The translations under genes were made by a program, and so were the position numbers. Shown here one piece after another: positions 15,070 to 35,156 of a stretch of 35,156 nucleotides of DNA. Source of the stretch: Blastocatellia bacterium (GTDB taxonomy: Bacteria > Acidobacteriota > Blastocatellia > Pyrinomonadales > Pyrinomonadaceae); the NCBI GenBank assembly GCA_013697915.1, contig JACCVY010000213.1, forward strand, positions 1 through 35,156, in the 5' to 3' direction. Position 1 is the first letter of the stretch. Each line of letters opens with the position of its first letter. The notes beneath the pieces were generated by a model that saw nothing but the letters and a program-made list of their open reading frames with translations, did not search any database and was not told the origin of the DNA.

Positions 15070-18000
15070 CTAGAATCCGGGCACCAGCATGCGGGCCATG
15101 CGTTCAGGATTCTTTATTCGTTGCGTTGTCATCCACGCGTCGGCTTCCGCAAGCAACTGCCGGCCACGATCATCAGCCAACAGCTCGCCCAGACGCCGGC
15201 GCGAGACGGCTGCGTAAAGATGCATGTCCACTCGATCGAAACCGTCGATCGCCGCTGCGAGTAACGTCGTGGCCGCCGTGGGCTGGTTGCGTTGATGCGC
15301 AACTGCGCTTCTGACAACTTCTGCAAACGGTTTCGCCCAGGCCATGTTTTCTTTTTCGATCTTGCGAGCCAGTGTTTCGGCGAAACTCAATTTATCTCGA
15401 TCGTTGTTGCGCAATGCCGTCGCCAAAACGGCGCGAGCGCGCAGGTAGGTTGCTTCAATGCGCAGCACCTGCGTGCGCAGCAACATGGAATTCTGCAGCA
15501 AGGGCCACTGCCCCGCGATATGCTTCCAGGCAACGTCGGCGTCTCCCGTATACAGTTCGATCTGCGCCTGTGCCAGCAGCGAGCTGTAATGTTGCAAGTG
15601 AAACCCTTCGTGCGGCCAGGCTTTCAGCGCCTCAATTACTTCCGCTCTGGCTTTGTCGGGATCGTCAGCCGCGAGCCAAATTGAATTCATGCGCGTGCGC
15701 AGGTCGGTAGCCGCGAAAACGTTTCCCTGTTCGAGTGCAGCAGAAAGCAGCGAAGGCACGCGCCGCGAAACCTCGGCCAATTCGCCAAGATATAAAAGTG
15801 CGCTCAACATGAACCGGTTCGCCATCGTCAGTTCCCAGGTCACGCCGGTGCATCGATCACGTAAGACTTCCGCGGCGCGCTCGCAAAGTTCAGCCGCCAG
15901 TTTCCACTCGCCCACCAAATAGGCGCTGACGCCGCGAGCCCAGATTGATAGTCCAATCGCATGCGGGTGTCCCACCCTTTGAGACAGTGCTTCAGCTTGC
16001 TGCGCGATTTGCAGAGCCCGTTCTTTCGACCTGCCGCCTGCCGACACGCTTTGCGCCACTTCAAAAGACATCGCGCGCGCAATGCGATAAGGTTCGCCGG
16101 CCTTTAACGCCAACAACAAGTGACGACTTTGAAAGTCCGCTCCGCGAATCAAATCAACTGCACCCAGCCCGGCGGCCACCGCCCAGCACGTATCGATGCG
16201 CACCAGATCCGCTTCCGGAATTTGACTCGCATCGCGCTCAGTAAAGTTCAGTCCCCGCAACTTAATCTGCAACCGTTTCAACAACAGCGAAAACAGCGCG
16301 CGCCTTGGGCCTGCCGGCAAGGTAAACCCGACCGCCGCCAGCACCGACCTAATCAGTTCCAGGCCTTCTTTGATGTGCCCGCCCATCAGCAACTGCTGCG
16401 CAGCGCGTCGCCGGAAATCAAGACTATGGGCCGCGGAACTTAGCTGGGCCACCTCGAGATAAGCTTCCGCCGCCTCAGCGGGCCGGCCGGCATTTGCCAG
16501 CGATTCGGCAAGTCCACGTTTAAGATCGACAAGTTCAGCGCCACGCGCGGGCGCCAGTTCCAGAGCGCGCCGGTAAAAGCCGGCGGCGCGATCAAAAGCG
16601 AGTGCGCTCGCCGCTTTGCGGGCAGCAACGGCAGCATGCGTGGCGGCGCGGACGCGTTCGCCGGCGCCAAGGTAGTGCTCGAACAACGCTTCCGGATCGT
16701 CAATGCCGCGCACTTCGATGGCATGGGCCAGGCGTTTGTGAATCTGTGTGACTTTGGTTGGCGATAACTGCGAGGCAAGCGTTTCGCGAATGCGATCATG
16801 ATACAACTCGAGCGTGTGCCCGTTACCGGCGCGAATAAACTGAGCTGCCCTAAGCGAGCCGATCAATTGCAACTCGTCACCGGAAAGTTCCGCCGCTTGA
16901 TAGACAACTTCAGGATTGATAGGCCGGCCGGCGATAGCGAGGGCGTCAACAAACGCGCGCGCGTCTTTTGGCAAGTGGCTCAGTCGCGCATCCAGCATCA
17001 TCGCCAAAGTGATACCGCTGGTGGCTGTTTGATCGCTGGTCAAGGCATAGCGCGCAAGCTGCTCCAACAAGAATGGATTGCCGCGCGCTTCGCCCAACAT
17101 CGCATCGACAAATTGGGCCAAAGCCGCCGCCCCCGGACCCAACAGGTGGTCCAACATTTCGTACGACTCCGACTTTGACAAAGCCCCAACATAAACTTCG
17201 CGGCAGTTATCCGTGCCGGTTTTCTCCAACAACGTTTTCAAAAACGGCTTGGCTTCCAGGTCTTCGGTGCGAAAGCTCGACAGCAGCATTAGCGGTGGTG
17301 AGTCAGGCGGGCGCAGCAAGTCTTCAAGCAGCGTGCTGCTGTCCGCGTCGGACCATTGCAAGTCATCGATATAAAGGACCAGCGGCTGGCGATCGGAAAT
17401 GCGCGCCAGCAGTTCGCGCAAAGCGGCAAAGGCCTTCCGTCGCAAAGTGAAAGGATCGGGCATGTCGTGCTCGCGTTGCGGCGCATTGAAAACCGCATCC
17501 ACTTGCAGCATCACCGGAAACAGCCTTGCCAGGGCCAGCACCTCGCGCGGCATCAACGCCTCTGCTTTAACGTCGGGCAGCGATAGCAAATATTTCGTTA
17601 AGCTGTCTACCACGCCATCAAGCGCTTTGTAAGGGACCGACTCGCGCTGGTAACAACGTCCTTCGAGAACAACAACCTCAGATTCATGCGTGCGCAACTC
17701 ATCGAGAAAATGACGCGCCAACGCTGTCTTGCCCATGCCTGAGCTGCCGTGCAAATAAACCGTAACTGTTTGATTGCGGCGCGTGAATGCAAAGGCTTCG
17801 TTGAGTTGTCGCAATTGTCGCACGCGACCAACGAACGCGGCTGCCTGCGCATTGGACGGGGCCGGCGCAGACATGATCGGGCGTTGCAATGGACCCGTCT
17901 TGCCGTGACCGAGTATGCGCAGGACTTCGCCGCCCTCGGGCCGATCTTCCGGCTTGCGTCGCAACAGGCGCATACAAAGATCGTTTAAGTCCGGAGGCAC

Positions 18001-18885
18001 ACTGCTGACGAGGTCGCTGGGCGCGGGCGGATCGAAGTTTTGCTTATTCATCATCACTTCGAAAAACTTTCCGGAAAACGGTAACCGCCCGGTCAGCGCC
18101 TGATACAACATAACGCCGATGCTGTACCAATCGCTGGCTCGCGAAATCGGCAGTTGCGCGCCCTGCTCGGGCGACATGTAATCAGGAGTGCCCGCCAGCG
18201 TCACGCTGTCGTGGAGTTCTTTGCCTTCTACCTGCGCAACCAAGCCAAAATCAAGAATCACTACCCGGCCTTCGTTTGTTACCAGCACGTTCGAAGGTTT
18301 AATGTCGCGATGAAGTTTTCCTGTTTCATGCAGGCCATGCAGACCTTCGGCAAGTTGGCGCAAGGCGACAGTCAAGCGACCGAGATCGAGTTTCGATTTC
18401 TCCAGCAAAGAATCGCCGCGCCGCTCGTTTGAGTCTTCACCAGAGCCTGAAAGGCTGATGGTATCCAACTGGCGTGTCTCTGCTTCGTAATCCGCAAGTA
18501 GTTCCGGAGGGGAACCCTCTTGCGTGCCTTTGAGCAGCGTCGGCGTCTTTGAGGATTGTTTGCGCCGCGACTGATAACCGGGGCGAACGTATTCCAGAAA
18601 GTTGACACCCTTGACCAGTTCCATGGTGAAGAACCAGTACTGCCCCTCCACCATGAACTCGTAAAGTGCTACCAGGTTGGGATGCGAGACATCTGCAAGC
18701 GAGCGAAACTCGTTTTTAAAACGCGAGATGTGCGAAGCCTCGGCCCGGGTGAGTGTTTTCAGCGCCACCAGTTTGTCAGTCTCGCGATCGTGCGCTTCAT
18801 AGACCACGCCCATGCCGCCAGAGCCAAGACGGCGGCGGATGCGAAAACGTTCGGTGCCAAGAAAGTCGTGTGAGCTTTGGCTCAT
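15070..18885 (-). CDS. Ser/Thr protein kinase fused to AAA-type ATPase and TPR-like region
   Basis: 1271 residues, apparently cytosolic. The Hanks-type kinase domain (about 13-326) has glycine loop G21SGGMG, K43, the catalytic loop H192-R-D194-IKPSN, DFG at 212-214 and GTPDYMSPEQ activation/P+1 segments, so it should be active. A polar insert of about 65 residues (104-168) splits the hinge from helix E. An AAA_16/STAND-like ATPase follows: FVGR at 351, Walker A GSSGMGKT (380-387), Walker B LVLYIDDLQW (D507-D508). The last 550 or so residues are helical, Ala/Leu-rich TPR-like repeats for partner binding. The layout resembles PknK-type regulators but no DNA-binding domain is seen. It is divergent from the GDT1 gene across 226 bp. 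Confidence 0.93.
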   Translation of the reverse strand: MSQSSHDFLGTERFRIRRRLGSGGMGVVYEAHDRETDKLVALKTLTRAEASHISRFKNEFRSLADVSHPNLVALYEFMVEGQYWFFTMELVKGVNFLEYVRPGYQSRRKQSSKTPTLLKGTQEGSPPELLADYEAETRQLDTISLSGSGEDSNERRGDSLLEKSKLDLGRLTVALRQLAEGLHGLHETGKLHRDIKPSNVLVTNEGRVVILDFGLVAQVEGKELHDSVTLAGTPDYMSPEQGAQLPISRASDWYSIGVMLYQALTGRLPFSGKFFEVMMNKQNFDPPAPSDLVSSVPPDLNDLCMRLLRRKPEDRPEGGEVLRILGHGKTGPLQRPIMSAPAPSNAQAAAFVGRVRQLRQLNEAFAFTRRNQTVTVYLHGSSGMGKTALARHFLDELRTHESEVVVLEGRCYQRESVPYKALDGVVDSLTKYLLSLPDVKAEALMPREVLALARLFPVMLQVDAVFNAPQREHDMPDPFTLRRKAFAALRELLARISDRQPLVLYIDDLQWSDADSSTLLEDLLRPPDSPPLMLLSSFRTEDLEAKPFLKTLLEKTGTDNCREVYVGALSKSESYEMLDHLLGPGAAALAQFVDAMLGEARGNPFLLEQLARYALTSDQTATSGITLAMMLDARLSHLPKDARAFVDALAIAGRPINPEVVYQAAELSGDELQLIGSLRAAQFIRAGNGHTLELYHDRIRETLASQLSPTKVTQIHKRLAHAIEVRGIDDPEALFEHYLGAGERVRAATHAAVAARKAASALAFDRAAGFYRRALELAPARGAELVDLKRGLAESLANAGRPAEAAEAYLEVAQLSSAAHSLDFRRRAAQQLLMGGHIKEGLELIRSVLAAVGFTLPAGPRRALFSLLLKRLQIKLRGLNFTERDASQIPEADLVRIDTCWAVAAGLGAVDLIRGADFQSRHLLLALKAGEPYRIARAMSFEVAQSVSAGGRSKERALQIAQQAEALSQRVGHPHAIGLSIWARGVSAYLVGEWKLAAELCERAAEVLRDRCTGVTWELTMANRFMLSALLYLGELAEVSRRVPSLLSAALEQGNVFAATDLRTRMNSIWLAADDPDKARAEVIEALKAWPHEGFHLQHYSSLLAQAQIELYTGDADVAWKHIAGQWPLLQNSMLLRTQVLRIEATYLRARAVLATALRNNDRDKLSFAETLARKIEKENMAWAKPFAEVVRSAVAHQRNQPTAATTLLAAAIDGFDRVDMHLYAAVSRRRLGELLADDRGRQLLAEADAWMTTQRIKNPERMARMLVPGF

Positions 18886-29213: not shown

Positions 29214-30614
29214 TTACGCAGCTTTTTGAGGCCTTGTCTTTAATACTCGCCGGCCATTGTATTTGTTTAGTCCTATCTTCTGCAGCGCGCTTGGGATTTC
29301 CGCGTTACGCATGAACCAGTGCCACACATTTCCCGTCCGCGAGTTGTCAGCGCTTAATAGAATTATCCCCGCGTTGATGCCAATCACGTCCCGGTCAACC
29401 CAACCCGTGTTTGGGTTGAACGCGTCGATGAATCCATACCTCCCGTAAATCCGGTCACCATACTTAGCGCGCATCGCACGCAGAGCGGCGACTGATATTT
29501 CCGGAGTGAACATCAGTGAACCGCCGGCGGCGGAAGGTACTACAGTGCCGTCAATTGCCGGATCGCGCGGCGGCCCGCCCCAGGCGAGATAACCCTTAGC
29601 ACTATCTGAAGCCGTGATGCCCCACATGTTAGGTCCAAATGCGGGAAACTCGTGCGAGAGGTTTATACAGAAAGCACGATGCGCGAGCGTGGCTTCTATT
29701 GAGTTCTCAAAATAATCGATCCCGTCCCCGCGGCTTTCGCGCCGGTTGCGATAGTCGATCCAGGCGTGCGCGTATTGATGCATAAAAAGCGGCACGCCAA
29801 CGGTTGTGAAATATGCGTGACCTTCATAGCGATAACGATCGCGCCACAGAGCGTACCAGGATGCGGGCGAAATCGGATGCGTGGGAGATCCAATTGCCAA
29901 CAAATAGAGAATGGTGTCTTCGCTAAAGGTGTCCCAGCGAGGCTTGAGAAAACCAGTCTCCGGTTTCCAGCCGTGTGACAAGAGCAGCGGGTGCCCGTTC
30001 AGCATCCAGTGAAAATCGACTCGTTCGTAAATCTTGGTTGCCAGCTTTCGTATTTCCGGATCATCACGGAAGTACTGGCGCGCAGTCAGCACGCCGGCCA
30101 GCAGCAACGCAGTATCGATGGATGAGACTTCGCTATTCCAGCGGCGTTCCCCGGTTTTCGTATCAAGCCAATGATAGAACCAACCGTGTTTCTCGAAAGC
30201 GCGGTCCGCAAAAAATCGTAAGGTACTAAGTGTGCGTTCACGCGCCTGATCCTTAGTGACCCAACCGTGTTCCGCAGCAATGCAAAGCGCAGTCAAGCCA
30301 AAGCCAGTCGCCGCGATGCTCGCAACGTTGCGATGATTCTCATCCAGATCTGAGCCATCCATGCGCGCGCGGTCCGGTACCAGACCTGTTTGCGGATCGG
30401 CCTGCTCCCAAAAATAGTTGAAGGAACGGTGCTGAAGGTCTGCAAGGAATTGCTCGTTTTCGCGTGAGAATCCTTCGACAGTTTGCCGGCGCTGAAGGGC
30501 GAATGTTGTCGAGAGGGAAGGCGGTGTGATTACCGAAGTGAAGGAGCACAGCAGGAACAGGACCGCGAGAATGTGGCGCAAACAAGAGAATAGCTGACCT
30601 CTAACTGAGTTCAT
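29214..30614 (-). CDS. Secreted PF10091 'glycoamylase' family protein, GH144-like
   Basis: 466 residues with an N-terminal signal (hydrophobic about 13-30). The (alpha/alpha)6-barrel hallmarks of PF10091 are in order: LQHRSFNYFWEQADPQTGLVPDR (60-82), ASIAATGFGLTAL (98-110), GWFYHWLDTKTGERRWNSEVSSIDTALLLAGVL (144-176), SEDTILYLLAIGSPTHPI (231-248) and GGSLMFTPE later. The characterised GH144 members of this fold are endo-beta-1,2-glucanases; most others are uncharacterised and 'glucoamylase' is a historical label. It follows a GH3 beta-glucosidase and a TonB-dependent receptor on the same strand, supporting a glucan-degrading role. Which glucan is inference. AGGT lies about 10 nt before the ATG. 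Confidence 0.88.
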   Translation of the reverse strand: MNSVRGQLFSCLRHILAVLFLLCSFTSVITPPSLSTTFALQRRQTVEGFSRENEQFLADLQHRSFNYFWEQADPQTGLVPDRARMDGSDLDENHRNVASIAATGFGLTALCIAAEHGWVTKDQARERTLSTLRFFADRAFEKHGWFYHWLDTKTGERRWNSEVSSIDTALLLAGVLTARQYFRDDPEIRKLATKIYERVDFHWMLNGHPLLLSHGWKPETGFLKPRWDTFSEDTILYLLAIGSPTHPISPASWYALWRDRYRYEGHAYFTTVGVPLFMHQYAHAWIDYRNRRESRGDGIDYFENSIEATLAHRAFCINLSHEFPAFGPNMWGITASDSAKGYLAWGGPPRDPAIDGTVVPSAAGGSLMFTPEISVAALRAMRAKYGDRIYGRYGFIDAFNPNTGWVDRDVIGINAGIILLSADNSRTGNVWHWFMRNAEIPSALQKIGLNKYNGRRVLKTRPQKAA

Positions 30615-30663
30615 TTTCTATGCTACCTAATGGCGAGACACACAAATACAATTCTAGTCAGCA

Positions 30664-30753
30664 AGTCTCACAGGTTGGGAAGGGTGGTTTACCCCCGCTC
30701 AGTCGGTGCCTCAATCTGGGCGGGGGCAAGCCCACCTTCCCGACCATGAGACT
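30664..30753. repeat. Dispersed inverted repeat, family B, copy 2
   Basis: agtctca (30664-30670) / tgagact (30747-30753) bracket imperfect 26-nt arms (30673-30698 and 30720-30745, about 21 of 26 matching) that share gcgggggcaagccc with copy 1 at 19437-19577. It lies between the GH3 and PF10091 genes, so it could attenuate or process a shared transcript. Confidence 0.8.
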
Positions 30754-30803
30754 TTCTTTCTTGAATCTGCTCTGGGTGTCTGTGCCTCTTTGGGCATAGT
30801 CCC

Positions 30804-33026
30804 TTACTGATTCTCAATCGTAAACGTTGCCTCGAGCAGTTCCTCAGAGTTTGGGCCAACCATCACTTTGAACTCTCCCGACTCAACCGCAAAGCGCATT
30901 TCTCGATTCCAGAAACCAAGTTGCTCCGCTTCAAGGGTAAAGTCCACACGTTTCTTCTCGCCGGCTGCCAGCGTGATTCGTTGAAACCCTTTCAGCTCTT
31001 TCACGGGCCGCGTCATGCTCGCGGCCACGTCGTGAATGTAGAGTTGGACCACTTCATCGCCCGCGCGCCGGCCTACGTTCTCGACGTCAACACTGACCAT
31101 TAATTTTCCTGCCGACGAAATACGTGGGGCGCTTAGTTGCAAGTTGGAAATCTTAAATTGCGTGTAGCTTAGCCCGTAACCGAAAGGGAATAGCGGCGTC
31201 CAGGGAACATCGAGATACTTCGAGGTGTATCGGTTGTTGGCTTCAGGGGGCCGGCCGGTGTTCATATGATTGTAGTAGATAGGCACCTGGCCCACGGTTC
31301 GCGGCCACGTGACCGGTAGTTTGCCACTCGGATTCACATCTCCAAACAGCACGTCGGCGATTGCATTGCCTGCTTCCGTGCCGCCCATCCACGCCTCGAG
31401 AACTGCCGGTGTGTTTTCAACTATCCATCCCACCGTCAACGGACGGCCATTGATCAATACCACAATCGTGGGTTTGCCGGTCGCGTGCACGGCCTTAACC
31501 AGATCCATCTGGCGGCCGGTAAGATCGAGTGAGCTTTTCGAAGCGGCTTCACCGACCATCTCCGCGGATTCGCCGACGAAGACGATGGCTACGTCACTAT
31601 CACGCGCGATAGCCACTGCTTCGGCAAAGCCTTCGGTTGAATCGCCCTGCGTGTCGCAGCCTTTCGCGTAGCTGACTTTCGTTGCCGGCGAGACCTTCGC
31701 CCTGATTCCCGTGAGTGGAGTGACTGTGTCCTCTGGTTTGCCGTCGCCGCTCCACCAGCCAAGCGGCGAACGATGGTCATCTGCCAACGGCCCGATAACG
31801 GCAATGGAGTGGAGGGCCTTACTCAGCGGCAAGGCTGCGCGCTCGTTCTTCAATAGGACCATGGAACGATCGGCGATGGCGCGCGCGGCGGCACGATTGG
31901 AGGCAGTAAGAAGCGAACTACTTTCACGTGCTTCGTCAGTATATGGATGTTCAAACAATCCCAGCCTGAATTTGATCCGCAGGATACGACGCACGGCTTC
32001 GTCGATTGTCGCCTGCGATATCTTTCCTTCTTTCAGCAGTTCCGGGCCACGCTGATTAAAGAGCCGACTGACCATTTCCATATCAACGCCGGCGTTTAGT
32101 GCCAGCCGGGCCGCGTCCGGGTCGTCTGCAGCCAGGCCATGGTTGATTAGTTCTTTCACTGAGGTGTAGTCGCTAACCACGAAGCCATCAAACTTCCATT
32201 CGCCGCGCAAGACCTTTGTCAGCGTGAAAGGATTGGCTGATGTCGGCACGCCGTTGAGATCGTTGAAGGCGCTCATTACGGTGCCAACGCCCGCATCAAC
32301 TGCTGCTTTGAATGGGGGAAAGTATATTTCGCGCAATGTGTTTTCCGACATGTCGGTGGTGTTGTAATCACGTCCCCCTTCAGTTGCCCCATAGGCAACC
32401 CAGTGTTTAGCGCACGCGAGTATCTTGTCCGGCGCACTATAATCAGTTCCCTGAAATCCACGCACGCGTGCGCGCGCAAAGGCGGCACCGAGGAACGGAT
32501 CTTCGCCGGCGCCTTCCGTGATTCGACCCCAGCGCGGGTCGCGCGCGATATCGAGCATGGGCGCGAATGTCCAGCGCACGCCGGAATTGCGGGCCTCCTG
32601 CGCGGCGATGCTGGTCGAACGTTGGGCTGACGCCGGATCCCAACTGCTGGCTTCAGCCAAGGGAATCGGAAAGATGGTGCGGTAACCGTGAATTACATCG
32701 AAGCCGAACAAGACGGGAATCTTCAGGCGAGATTCATCCATTGCCACATGCTGCAGCTGGTTGGTATTTTTCGCGCCGCGAACGTTCAGGGTTGAGCCAA
32801 GCAGACCTTCGCGAATCAGATCCGGGTGCTCAGGACGAAAGGTGCCATTGCCTTCGCCATCGAGTTGCTGAAGTTGGCCGAGTTTCTCCGCGAGAGTCAT
32901 GCGCGCGAGCAACGCACCAATCCTTTTCTCGGTCTCACTTTGCGAGGACGTTGCCACCCGGGGCGATAGGGTTGCAGCCAGGACCACGAAGATCATTAAC
33001 AGCCAAGTAAACTTCACAGACCTCAT
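30804..33026 (-). CDS. GH3 beta-glucosidase, secreted
   Basis: 740 residues of the BglX type with a signal peptide (hydrophobic about 7-21). The GH3 N-terminal barrel covers about 35-370: FGFDVIHGYRTIFPIPLAEA, RWTFAPMLDIARDPRWGR, ACAKHWVAYG (K207-H208), and the nucleophile D286 in GFVVSDYTSVKEL. The alpha/beta sandwich (about 390-600) supplies the acid/base; a C-terminal fibronectin III-like domain follows (KISNLQLSAPRIS to the end). It releases glucose from non-reducing ends of beta-gluco-oligosaccharides in the periplasm. GGAG is 9 nt before the ATG. It sits between a TonB receptor gene and a PF10091 glucanase gene, all on one strand, so it would finish the oligosaccharides produced. Linkage preference is not visible. 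Confidence 0.95.
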   Translation of the reverse strand: MRSVKFTWLLMIFVVLAATLSPRVATSSQSETEKRIGALLARMTLAEKLGQLQQLDGEGNGTFRPEHPDLIREGLLGSTLNVRGAKNTNQLQHVAMDESRLKIPVLFGFDVIHGYRTIFPIPLAEASSWDPASAQRSTSIAAQEARNSGVRWTFAPMLDIARDPRWGRITEGAGEDPFLGAAFARARVRGFQGTDYSAPDKILACAKHWVAYGATEGGRDYNTTDMSENTLREIYFPPFKAAVDAGVGTVMSAFNDLNGVPTSANPFTLTKVLRGEWKFDGFVVSDYTSVKELINHGLAADDPDAARLALNAGVDMEMVSRLFNQRGPELLKEGKISQATIDEAVRRILRIKFRLGLFEHPYTDEARESSSLLTASNRAAARAIADRSMVLLKNERAALPLSKALHSIAVIGPLADDHRSPLGWWSGDGKPEDTVTPLTGIRAKVSPATKVSYAKGCDTQGDSTEGFAEAVAIARDSDVAIVFVGESAEMVGEAASKSSLDLTGRQMDLVKAVHATGKPTIVVLINGRPLTVGWIVENTPAVLEAWMGGTEAGNAIADVLFGDVNPSGKLPVTWPRTVGQVPIYYNHMNTGRPPEANNRYTSKYLDVPWTPLFPFGYGLSYTQFKISNLQLSAPRISSAGKLMVSVDVENVGRRAGDEVVQLYIHDVAASMTRPVKELKGFQRITLAAGEKKRVDFTLEAEQLGFWNREMRFAVESGEFKVMVGPNSEELLEATFTIENQ

Positions 33027-33242
33027 CTAGTGTTTCTCCGGCACTGAAAAAGCATAGTGAAAGGTTACGGGATTACTGTCCCAATTTGAAAGTTTATCTC
33101 TGCGAAGACCGCTTGAGCCTGTGACCAGAATAGCGGTTAGCCAATAACGCAGAAAGTCAAAAACTTAAGTGCTGCCAAAACCCATGAAACCGTTCCATTC
33201 AAGTTCCACTCGCACTGTCCCCTGACGAATATCAGAAACGCG

Positions 33243-33273
33243 AATGGATGGACCACCGGGTGGCCCATCCATT
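33243..33273. terminator. Hairpin after the TonB receptor gene
   Basis: aatggatgg / ccatccatt (33243-33251 / 33265-33273) with a nested ccacc-g-ggtgg gives a nearly perfect 15-bp stem with one mismatch and a one-base loop (steric constraints would open it slightly). It starts 22 nt beyond the receptor stop on the minus strand. A TTT follows but no full T-tract, so it is terminator-like rather than canonical. The rest of the 268-bp gap before the GH3 gene has no clear feature. Confidence 0.55.
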
Positions 33274-33294
33274 TGCTCGAACCTTCGCGCCGGA

Positions 33295-35156
33295 CTAGAA
33301 ACTGAACCGAAATTGAAATTCGGTGACGCGCCCAGCGAGAGCGCTTAGAGCGCGGCCAAAGTCTCCCCGGTTAGTAAAATCGGTGTTGGCTCGTCCGCCC
33401 GTTTGAAAGGGAGGAAGGTTAAGAATGTTGAAGACGTTGAAGAAGTTGGCCCTGACTTCCAGGTTTGCCGCTTCACCGAGATGCAGAAAACTCGGGAGCC
33501 CCGTCTGCTTAACGATACTGAGATCGACTGAGCGATAGTTTGGTCCGCGGAACGAGTTGCGCCCGACGCCCGCCGGCCCTCGCAACAGTGTGGTCACACA
33601 GTGTATTGGGAAATCGCTGCAATCATCGATCACGCCAAAAGCGGTGCGTCCGCCATTTGGGAAAATCCCGTTAATGAAGTCCTGGTTATTGGGATTTGAA
33701 ATCGCGCCGCCAAAGTATTGGGTCGGAAAGTCGTTGCCCTTGCCATCACCATTGGCATCGTTGGCTGCGTCCCCGGGACGATCAAAGAAGCAGCAGCCCT
33801 GCTGAGGCGTCCAGGGGAAGCCGGAGTGGAGATCAAGAATGCCATTGATTTGGAAACCGCCAAAAGCCTTGCCCACAAAATCTGTGCGATGACGGAAGAG
33901 CGGGATGTCCCACAGCCCCGAAAGAATAAAGTTGTGACGAATATCGAAATCCGACGGCCCACGATCGAGTCGCTGGTCGCTTGGATCCGTCTGCTGCGCT
34001 CCCCGTCCGAATGAGCTGGTGTCAATACTCTTGCTCCAGCGGTAAACGCCTTCCATTTGAAAGCCGCTCGAGTATCGGCGTGTCGCGCGCAAGATCATCG
34101 CGTTGTAGCTAGAATTTACGTCGGGTAACGGGAAAAAGATGCGATCAAAGTTTGGATTGCCAGTCAGGCGCGGCGTGATTTTGGTCCCATTTGCCAGCGC
34201 CTCCTGCACCTCGTCCTTTTGATTGACACAACCGACGCAGTTAAACGAATCGCCTGGATAGTAACGGTTGAGATCGACGGTGCGGATCAGCTTACGGCCC
34301 ATACTCCCCTGATATCCGACCGACGTGATAATTTTGTGTGGCAGCTGGTACTGAACATCCAACGAATAGCTATAAACGTAGGAGTTCGGCAAATCCCTGG
34401 GCGCGCCGTTGATCTCAATAGGAATGTCACGCCGAATGAAACCGCCGGGCAGCGTTACCGGACCGCCCGGATTGAGTAGCCCGCCCGTCTGTGGATCGAT
34501 CCCACCGCGCAGGGCCGCGTTGGGCGGATATGACAATGGCGCGCCGGCCGTGCCGAAAGCATAGAGAATCTGGCCCGTCCCATCCGGATCGGTTGGAGTG
34601 CCACAACATAGTCCCACCCCTGCTGCTGAAAACGGCGTATTGAAACGCGCGTTGTTGAAGAGATTTGTGAAGAGGCGATCGTAGAAGATGCCGAACCCGG
34701 CGCGCACGACCAACTTGTCCTCGCCAAAGAGATTCTTCAGCATCCCGTCATCGAAACGCGGACTCCAGGCGATACCAACTCGCGGTGCGAAGTTGTTGAA
34801 GTCGCTATCGTAAAGTTTCCTGACCGGAACAACGCGACCATCAATCACGCCATTCGGACCAAGTTGGTAGTTAGTCAGTCGTCCCTGAGTTTCCGTGAGC
34901 GGCGATTGGTATTCCCATCGCATTCCCAGGTTGATCGTCAGATTCGGTCTGAACTTCCAGTCATCCTGCACAAAGAAACCGAATGAATTGGTGCGGAAGT
35001 AGCGCTGGCTGTCGGGCGGACCACCGGTCAACGGATCAATATCCTGTGTGTTTTCAAAGAAGGGCGCGTCGTTGGCCAAAGAGAGTATGTTGTCGAAGGA
35101 GAACTCAGGCCGTGAGCGTATGCGCCGGTTACTGTTGTCCTGCTCGCGGCGGACTT
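33295..35156 (-). CDS. TonB-dependent receptor, Oar-like, C-terminal part
   Basis: The frame is open to the window edge, so the N-terminus (signal, carboxypeptidase-regulatory-like domain, plug) is missing; about 620 residues are visible. It is an outer-membrane beta-barrel with many amphipathic strands, for example SFGFFVQDDWKFRPNLTINLGMRWEY early on, the YSYSLDVQYQLPHKIITSVGYQGS strand pair, RPSDFDIRHNFILSGLWDIP-like turn sequence, and a C-terminal strand ending in FRFSF, the outer-membrane insertion signal. It matches the Oar-like/CarboxypepD_reg receptors expanded in Acidobacteriota. A Cys pair (CVGCVNQ) and a CC in a loop could form extracellular disulfides. Position upstream of GH3 and PF10091 genes suggests oligosaccharide import. 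Confidence 0.92.
   Translation of the reverse strand, partial: VRREQDNSNRRIRSRPEFSFDNILSLANDAPFFENTQDIDPLTGGPPDSQRYFRTNSFGFFVQDDWKFRPNLTINLGMRWEYQSPLTETQGRLTNYQLGPNGVIDGRVVPVRKLYDSDFNNFAPRVGIAWSPRFDDGMLKNLFGEDKLVVRAGFGIFYDRLFTNLFNNARFNTPFSAAGVGLCCGTPTDPDGTGQILYAFGTAGAPLSYPPNAALRGGIDPQTGGLLNPGGPVTLPGGFIRRDIPIEINGAPRDLPNSYVYSYSLDVQYQLPHKIITSVGYQGSMGRKLIRTVDLNRYYPGDSFNCVGCVNQKDEVQEALANGTKITPRLTGNPNFDRIFFPLPDVNSSYNAMILRATRRYSSGFQMEGVYRWSKSIDTSSFGRGAQQTDPSDQRLDRGPSDFDIRHNFILSGLWDIPLFRHRTDFVGKAFGGFQINGILDLHSGFPWTPQQGCCFFDRPGDAANDANGDGKGNDFPTQYFGGAISNPNNQDFINGIFPNGGRTAFGVIDDCSDFPIHCVTTLLRGPAGVGRNSFRGPNYRSVDLSIVKQTGLPSFLHLGEAANLEVRANFFNVFNILNLPPFQTGGRANTDFTNRGDFGRALSALAGRVTEFQFRFSF

What the first reader, a model, noticed from the sequence alone, without database searches (positions are those of the whole stretch)
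29214..35156. Possible beta-1,2-glucan (sophoro-glucan) utilisation locus
A TonB-dependent receptor, a GH3 beta-glucosidase and a PF10091 protein are co-directional. Characterised PF10091/GH144 enzymes are endo-beta-1,2-glucanases, and in Bacteroidetes they are found near GH3 enzymes acting on sophoro-oligosaccharides. Here the importer is an Oar-like receptor instead of a SusCD pair, which would be a different architecture for the same task.
Basis: partly seen in the sequence, partly recalled or inferred. Interest (0 to 1): 0.65.

Follow-up and report, generated by a model that had tools for sequence, protein, structure and literature searches.

The report
SusD-less beta-1,2-glucan utilisation locus
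A soil acidobacterium carries a conserved gene set (an outer-membrane importer, a beta-1,2-glucan-cutting enzyme, a beta-glucosidase and a nearby sugar ABC transporter) that most likely lets it feed on the rare beta-1,2-glucans other bacteria make; it is a new arrangement of a known kind of pathway, and none of its enzymes has been assayed.

Summary
On the minus strand the contig carries the C-terminal 619 codons of an Oar-like TonB-dependent receptor, a BglX-type GH3 and a PF10091 protein. The window is a whole contig. Its end shares an exact 127-base overlap with contig C133, which supplies the receptor's N-terminal half and, divergently, a XylF/XylG/GguB-type monosaccharide ABC transporter. 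The PF10091 protein's nearest characterised relative is XcSGL, a GH144 endo-beta-1,2-glucanase (43% identity). All four mapped active-site residues are kept (E232, D167, F277, Y342), and the model superposes best on GH144 structures (Z 49-51). It lies in an unassayed clade sister to the characterised GH144 enzymes. The core is conserved: GH3 is adjacent in 33 of 37 Blastocatellia loci (fused to the glucanase in five), with this receptor type in 30. [quoted passage not shown] SusD is almost absent from these genomes, so the SusD-less layout is normal for the lineage. In about ten relatives alpha-glucan genes lie next door, which leaves some doubt about the receptor's ligand. Best reading: uptake and breakdown of beta-1,2-glucan to glucose. 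New variant of a known kind; activity untested.

The parts
29214..30614 (-). GH144-type endo-beta-1,2-glucanase (PF10091), 466 aa; general acid E232, general-base position D167, clan residues F277 and Y342; N-terminus looks like an export signal
   Evidence: Pfam, PDB sequence search, residue mapping, model and fold search, tree. Export signal judged by eye only.
30804..33026 (-). GH3 beta-glucosidase, BglX type, 740 aa; nucleophile D286, acid/base E493, +1-subsite R592 and Y600
   Evidence: Pfam and NCBIfam, PDB sequence search, residue mapping against JMB19063 and Lin1840 literature
33295..35154 (-). C-terminal 619 codons of an Oar-like TonB-dependent receptor; the N-terminal half is on contig C133 (joined open frame 1267 codons)
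   Evidence: Pfam, own-genome search, exact 127-base overlap of C133 and C29, joined frame

Best explanation
This is a beta-1,2-glucan utilisation locus of a Pyrinomonadaceae/Blastocatellia bacterium. Inferred working: the Oar-like TonB-dependent receptor takes linear or cyclic beta-1,2-glucan, or its oligosaccharides, across the outer membrane. The exported GH144-type enzyme (E232 general acid, D167 at the general-base position) cuts it endolytically to sophoro-oligosaccharides. The exported GH3 releases glucose from these. The divergently encoded XylF/XylG/GguB-type ABC transporter carries the monosaccharide into the cytoplasm. Shown here: gene content, family and fold, retained catalytic residues, conserved linkage, and GH3-glucanase fusion in relatives. 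Inferred: substrate, direction of import, cell location, inverting mechanism, and the sugar carried by the ABC transporter.
For: Nearest characterised relative is XcSGL, specific for beta-1,2-glucan (PMC12102758), 42.9% identity. Catalytic and clan residues kept, with published XcSGL and CpSGL numbering reproduced. Model Z 49-51 to GH144. GH3 keeps the +1 Arg/Tyr that bind sophorose in Lin1840. GH3 adjacent in 33 of 37 loci, receptor in 30, ABC transporter in 11, GH3-glucanase fusion in five genomes. [quoted passage not shown]
Against: No member of this clade has been assayed, and it is sister to, not nested in, the characterised GH144 enzymes. 32 of 89 positions invariant in four solved GH144 proteins differ here, including CpSGL D400 to N414. 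In ten relatives GH13/GH77/MFS or related alpha-glucan genes lie beside the block. The GH3 subsite does not separate sophorose from laminaribiose. The ABC transporter parts score below every curated cut-off.
Confidence: 0.75

Rival explanations
1. A mixed or alpha-glucan locus: the receptor imports maltodextrin or a branched alpha/beta-glucan, and the GH144-type and GH3 enzymes only remove beta-linkages in it or serve a side role.
For: In ten of 37 relatives genes of an alpha-glucan set (GH13 amylases, GH77, MFS, SDR, one GH15) lie beside the block.
Against: That set is absent in most loci and in this window; where order could be read it is on the strand opposite the glucanase, so a separate unit. 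GH3 and the receptor stay with the glucanase without it, and GH3 is fused to the glucanase in five genomes.
Confidence: 0.12
2. Recycling or trimming of the bacterium's own periplasmic beta-1,2-glucan: the enzymes act on self-made cyclic glucan, and the receptor only recovers what leaks out.
For: The genome encodes a 2952-aa synthase-like protein with GH189 and GH94 parts; in Terriglobia the homologue adjoins such a synthase gene.
Against: In Blastocatellia the synthase gene is elsewhere, and the block carries a dedicated receptor and often an importer, which fits feeding better than recycling.
Confidence: 0.08
3. The clade has changed substrate: a GH144 fold working on another beta-glucan or glucoside, with the same catalytic acids.
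For: Sister clade outside all assayed GH144; the GH144 stretch IDQGP reads INAGI here; clan Group 4 shows that members without detected activity exist (PMC12102758).
Against: General acid, general-base position and the -3 stacking tyrosine are kept; Group 4 lacks the acidic base residue, this clade has it. The assayed neighbour families act on beta-1,2-glucan.
Confidence: 0.05

Closest known systems
XcSGL (XCC2207, PDB 8xul), GH144 endo-beta-1,2-glucanase of Xanthomonas campestris
   Same: Same fold, same catalytic and clan residues including Asp at the general-base position and the E-x-S-S-x-D motif; 42.9% identity
   Different: Separate sister clade; lacks the 8xul C-terminal extension; the active-site stretch IDQGP reads INAGI
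CpSGL (Chitinophaga pinensis, PDB 5gzh/5gzk), GH144 founder
   Same: Same fold and general acid; F268 and Y330 equivalents kept
   Different: 31% identity; Asp instead of Glu142 at the base position; CpSGL D135 and D139 not kept
Ignavibacterium album beta-1,2-glucan cluster (IALB_1177-1187, PMC8861115)
   Same: GH144 enzymes with a proposed TonB-dependent transporter and an ABC importer
   Different: Has GH94 and the GH35 transferase; here a GH3 does the last step, no GH94 in the block, and the ABC transporter is of the monosaccharide type
Bacteroides SusCD-type beta-1,2-glucan cluster (BT_3567 GH3 with GH144; from PMC8861115 and own knowledge)
   Same: GH144 and BglX-like GH3 (5xxl is among the closest structures) with a TonB-dependent receptor
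   Different: No SusD; receptor is PF25183/Oar-like with a CarboxypepD_reg domain, not SusC
Listeria innocua Lin1839-Lin1840 cluster (PMC4757417)
   Same: GH3 with the Arg/Tyr +1 subsite that binds sophorose
   Different: Phosphorolytic GH94 pathway, Gram-positive, no endo-glucanase or outer-membrane receptor in that pair

Membership tests
GH144 (clan GH-S) | Sequence similarity within the span of the family | tested here: met
   42.9% to XcSGL, 31.0% to CpSGL, against 30.4% between those two; GH194, GH189 far lower
GH144 (clan GH-S) | Nests among characterised GH144 enzymes in a tree | tested here: inconclusive
   Sister clade, 95/99 against 99/94; rooted by long GH189 branches, GH194 absent from the tree
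GH144 (clan GH-S) | General acid Glu, clan Phe and Tyr (XcSGL E239, F286, Y367) | tested here: met
   E232, F277, Y342
GH144 (clan GH-S) | Acidic residue at the general-base position (CpSGL E142) | tested here: met
   D167, Asp in all 41 homologues aligned
GH144 (clan GH-S) | (alpha/alpha)6 barrel closest to GH144 structures | tested here: met
   Z 49-51 at 1.9-2.4 A over 387-397 residues
GH144 (clan GH-S) | Hydrolysis of beta-1,2-glucan with inversion | not testable with these tools
   Needs an assay
GH3 BglX-type beta-glucosidase acting on sophoro-oligosaccharides | BglX family score above cut-off | tested here: met
   833 against 666 bits
GH3 BglX-type beta-glucosidase acting on sophoro-oligosaccharides | Nucleophile, acid/base and +1 Arg/aromatic pair of Lin1840/JMB19063 | tested here: met
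   D286, E493, R592, Y600, same in all orthologues that cover them
GH3 BglX-type beta-glucosidase acting on sophoro-oligosaccharides | Preference for sophoro-oligosaccharides | not testable with these tools
   The subsite also fits laminaribiose
SusCD-type polysaccharide utilisation locus | SusD-like lipoprotein beside the receptor | tested here: not met
   No SusD_RagB match in this genome, 1 of 39 relatives; other SusD families were not searched
SusD-less TonB-dependent carbohydrate uptake locus | Receptor encoded with glycosidases, conserved across genomes | tested here: met
   Receptor in 30, GH3 in 33 of 37 loci; ABC transporter seen in 11
SusD-less TonB-dependent carbohydrate uptake locus | The receptor transports the glycan | not testable with these tools
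   Needs a deletion or binding test

The most novel reading that the evidence does not exclude
A whole acidobacterial guild forages on cyclic beta-1,2-glucans of neighbouring bacteria such as rhizobia: an Oar-like TonB-dependent receptor imports the intact ring and feeds a new sister family of GH144, which in one lineage is fused to its beta-glucosidase as a single-chain polymer-to-glucose enzyme.
Probability: 0.25. Interest if true: 0.65.

Novelty: new variant of a known kind. Interest (0 to 1): 0.42.

Why it matters
Beta-1,2-glucans are symbiosis, virulence and osmotic factors, and few of their consumers are known. This locus points to a testable consumer group (Blastocatellia, common among soil MAGs), an untested sister clade of GH144 spread over Acidobacteriota and reaching Elusimicrobiota, a natural GH3-glucanase fusion that could serve as a single-chain tool, and a candidate outer-membrane receptor for a beta-1,2-glucan, for which the Ignavibacterium study (PMC8861115) noted no biochemical evidence among close homologues.

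Tried and rejected
Starch reading from the Pfam name Glycoamylase: rejected for the enzyme, since its relatives by sequence and fold are beta-1,2-glucanases and true glucoamylases come far below (Z about 20). Clan Group 4: rejected because D167 is present. GH192, GH194, GH162, GH189: much lower scores and Z. A GH194 reference for the tree could not be obtained; a query with the second PF10091 protein of L053 did not bring PgSGL3 near the top. Literature on GH144 or SusD-less loci in Acidobacteriota gave nothing direct. Promoter and terminator scans found no more than shuffles; Rfam found nothing. The two other GH144-type genes of the genome (C34, C132) have neither GH3 nor receptor beside them in a plain ORF listing, so they are not partners of this locus. 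The exporter-like ABC protein beside the synthase-like genes of Terriglobia is not specifically ChvA-like.

Full report
What is there. The window is the whole of contig C29 of a 4.5-Mb genome in 271 contigs. Named relatives are Pyrinomonadaceae/Blastocatellia MAGs. On the minus strand, in transcription order, lie the C-terminal 619 codons of a PF25183 TonB-dependent receptor (33295-35154), a 740-aa GH3 (30804-33026) and a 466-aa PF10091 protein (29214-30614).

What lies beyond 35156. A search of the genome with a full-length relative of the receptor (from L051) found its N-terminal half at the end of contig C133. C133 and the reverse complement of the window share an exact 127-base overlap, as expected of two contigs cut at one point of an assembly graph. 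Joined, they give one open frame of 1267 codons. Upstream and divergent on C133 are three genes whose best NCBIfam models are xylose or multiple-monosaccharide ABC transporter parts, each below the curated cut-off: substrate-binding 379 against 504 bits, ATPase 692 against 699, permease 333 against 450. The class is clear; the exact sugar is not.

The PF10091 protein. The nearest solved relative is XcSGL (8xul, XCC2207), E 1.3e-76, then the Bacteroides and Chitinophaga GH144 proteins; GH194 PgSGL3 scores 51 bits and GH189 17.5 bits. The 2025 study that created GH192-194 reports XcSGL as a GH144 enzyme specific for beta-1,2-glucan, defines the clan by XcSGL E239, F286 and Y367, and names the residue matching CpSGL E142 as the likely general base (PMC12102758). 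In my alignment these positions are E232, F277, Y342 and D167. With one constant offset per protein the published XcSGL and CpSGL numbers all come out right, which supports the alignment. AlphaFold2 gave a model of mean pLDDT 83.5. It matches GH144 structures with Z 49-51, GH189 45, GH194 37, GH192 35 and GH162 30, and the next fold at 21.

Family position. A maximum-likelihood tree puts the window protein in a clade of 37 sequences (95/99), sister to a clade holding XcSGL, CpSGL, two Bacteroides structures and two paralogues from this same genome (99/94). The root depends on long GH189 branches, and GH194 was missing. By identity the protein is closer to XcSGL (42.9%) than XcSGL is to CpSGL (30.4%). 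I therefore call it a GH144-type enzyme in an unassayed sister subfamily. 32 of 89 positions invariant in four solved GH144 proteins differ, among them the residue matching CpSGL D400, whose mutant keeps sufficient activity and which is N414 here. A substrate shift is not excluded.

The GH3. It is a BglX-type enzyme (833 bits against 666). Its nearest structures include JMB19063, the 5xxl enzyme, periplasmic beta-glucosidases of the 6r5 series and Lin1840. The +1 subsite of Lin1840, with Arg572 and Tyr583, gives activity on sophorose and laminaribiose and disfavours cellobiose (PMC4757417). The window protein has R592 and Y600 there and the catalytic pair D286 and E493; all orthologues that cover these positions agree. 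It is the only such GH3 found in the genome.

Conserved linkage. I tallied by hand 37 Blastocatellia loci with the window-type glucanase, one per genome, from the neighbourhood tables. GH3 is adjacent or fused in 33; of the other four, L046 is cut by a contig end. A receptor of this type is present in 30, and six of the other seven lie near contig ends. The ABC transporter is seen in 11. In five genomes (G023, G156, G195, G323, G329) GH3 and glucanase are one reading frame of 1168-1202 aa, and in four of these (L082, L119, L121, L122) ABC transporter genes follow on the same strand. Fusion and shared order across genera and families are strong evidence of a shared pathway. A TPR-protein gene on the opposite strand often sits between receptor and GH3 in relatives; it is missing here.

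Link to beta-1,2-glucan beyond homology. [quoted passage not shown] L047, L050, L134, L137) with an exporter-like ABC protein. That ABC protein is not specifically ChvA-like. An Omnitrophota locus (L053) has a GH94 closest to the synthase's GH94 domain, as in the Ignavibacterium album cluster (PMC8861115).

Doubts. In ten relatives alpha-glucan genes (GH13, GH77, MFS and others, with a GH15 in one) lie beside the block, on the strand opposite the glucanase in the fully readable cases. They are absent in most loci and in this window, so I read them as neighbours, but the receptor's ligand could still be broader. Both enzymes look exported, judged by eye from their N-termini; no signal-peptide program was available. 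Whether they sit in the periplasm or outside the cell is inferred.

Architecture and novelty. SusD_RagB (PF07980) has no match in this genome and was found in 1 of 39 relatives, while PF25183 receptors are numerous (38 match segments). A SusD-less locus is therefore normal for the lineage. A TonB-dependent transporter with GH144 and an ABC importer was already proposed for I. album. The new points are the Oar-type receptor, the sister clade, the GH3-glucanase fusion and the breadth of conservation. I rate it a new variant of a known kind.

Noticed in passing
30660-30760, between GH3 and the glucanase: A palindromic element folding far better than shuffles (z -7.2); its 23-nt arm occurs 90 times in the genome at up to 3 mismatches (18 exact), often as inverted pairs, against 0 for the reversed control. 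The genome has 13 Y1-transposase (PF01797) matches, one about 350 bases from a copy on C147: a REP/RAYT-like system.
   Followed up: partly
33240-33276: An 18-nt inverted repeat with 1 nt between the arms just after the receptor's stop codon, without an obvious T tract; possible terminator or processing site.
   Followed up: no
[quoted passage not shown]
   Followed up: partly
L007 5717-7018 and L008 8681-10042 (contigs C34, C132): Two further GH144-type genes, closer to XcSGL than the window protein is, lying alone without GH3 or receptor beside them.
   Followed up: partly
L082, L119, L120, L121, L122: GH3 and glucanase fused in one reading frame of 1168-1179 or 1202 aa in five genomes of two genera.
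   Followed up: yes
L041 5396-6886, L051 5622-7088 and equivalents: A TPR-repeat protein encoded on the opposite strand between receptor and GH3 in many relatives, absent here; role unknown.
   Followed up: no
L133 (G170): A Terriglobia locus with GH3, a 722-aa second GH144-like protein, a window-type homologue and a TonB-dependent receptor together.
   Followed up: no
15070-18885 (-): A 1271-aa protein with a serine/threonine kinase domain followed by an AAA ATPase domain.
   Followed up: no
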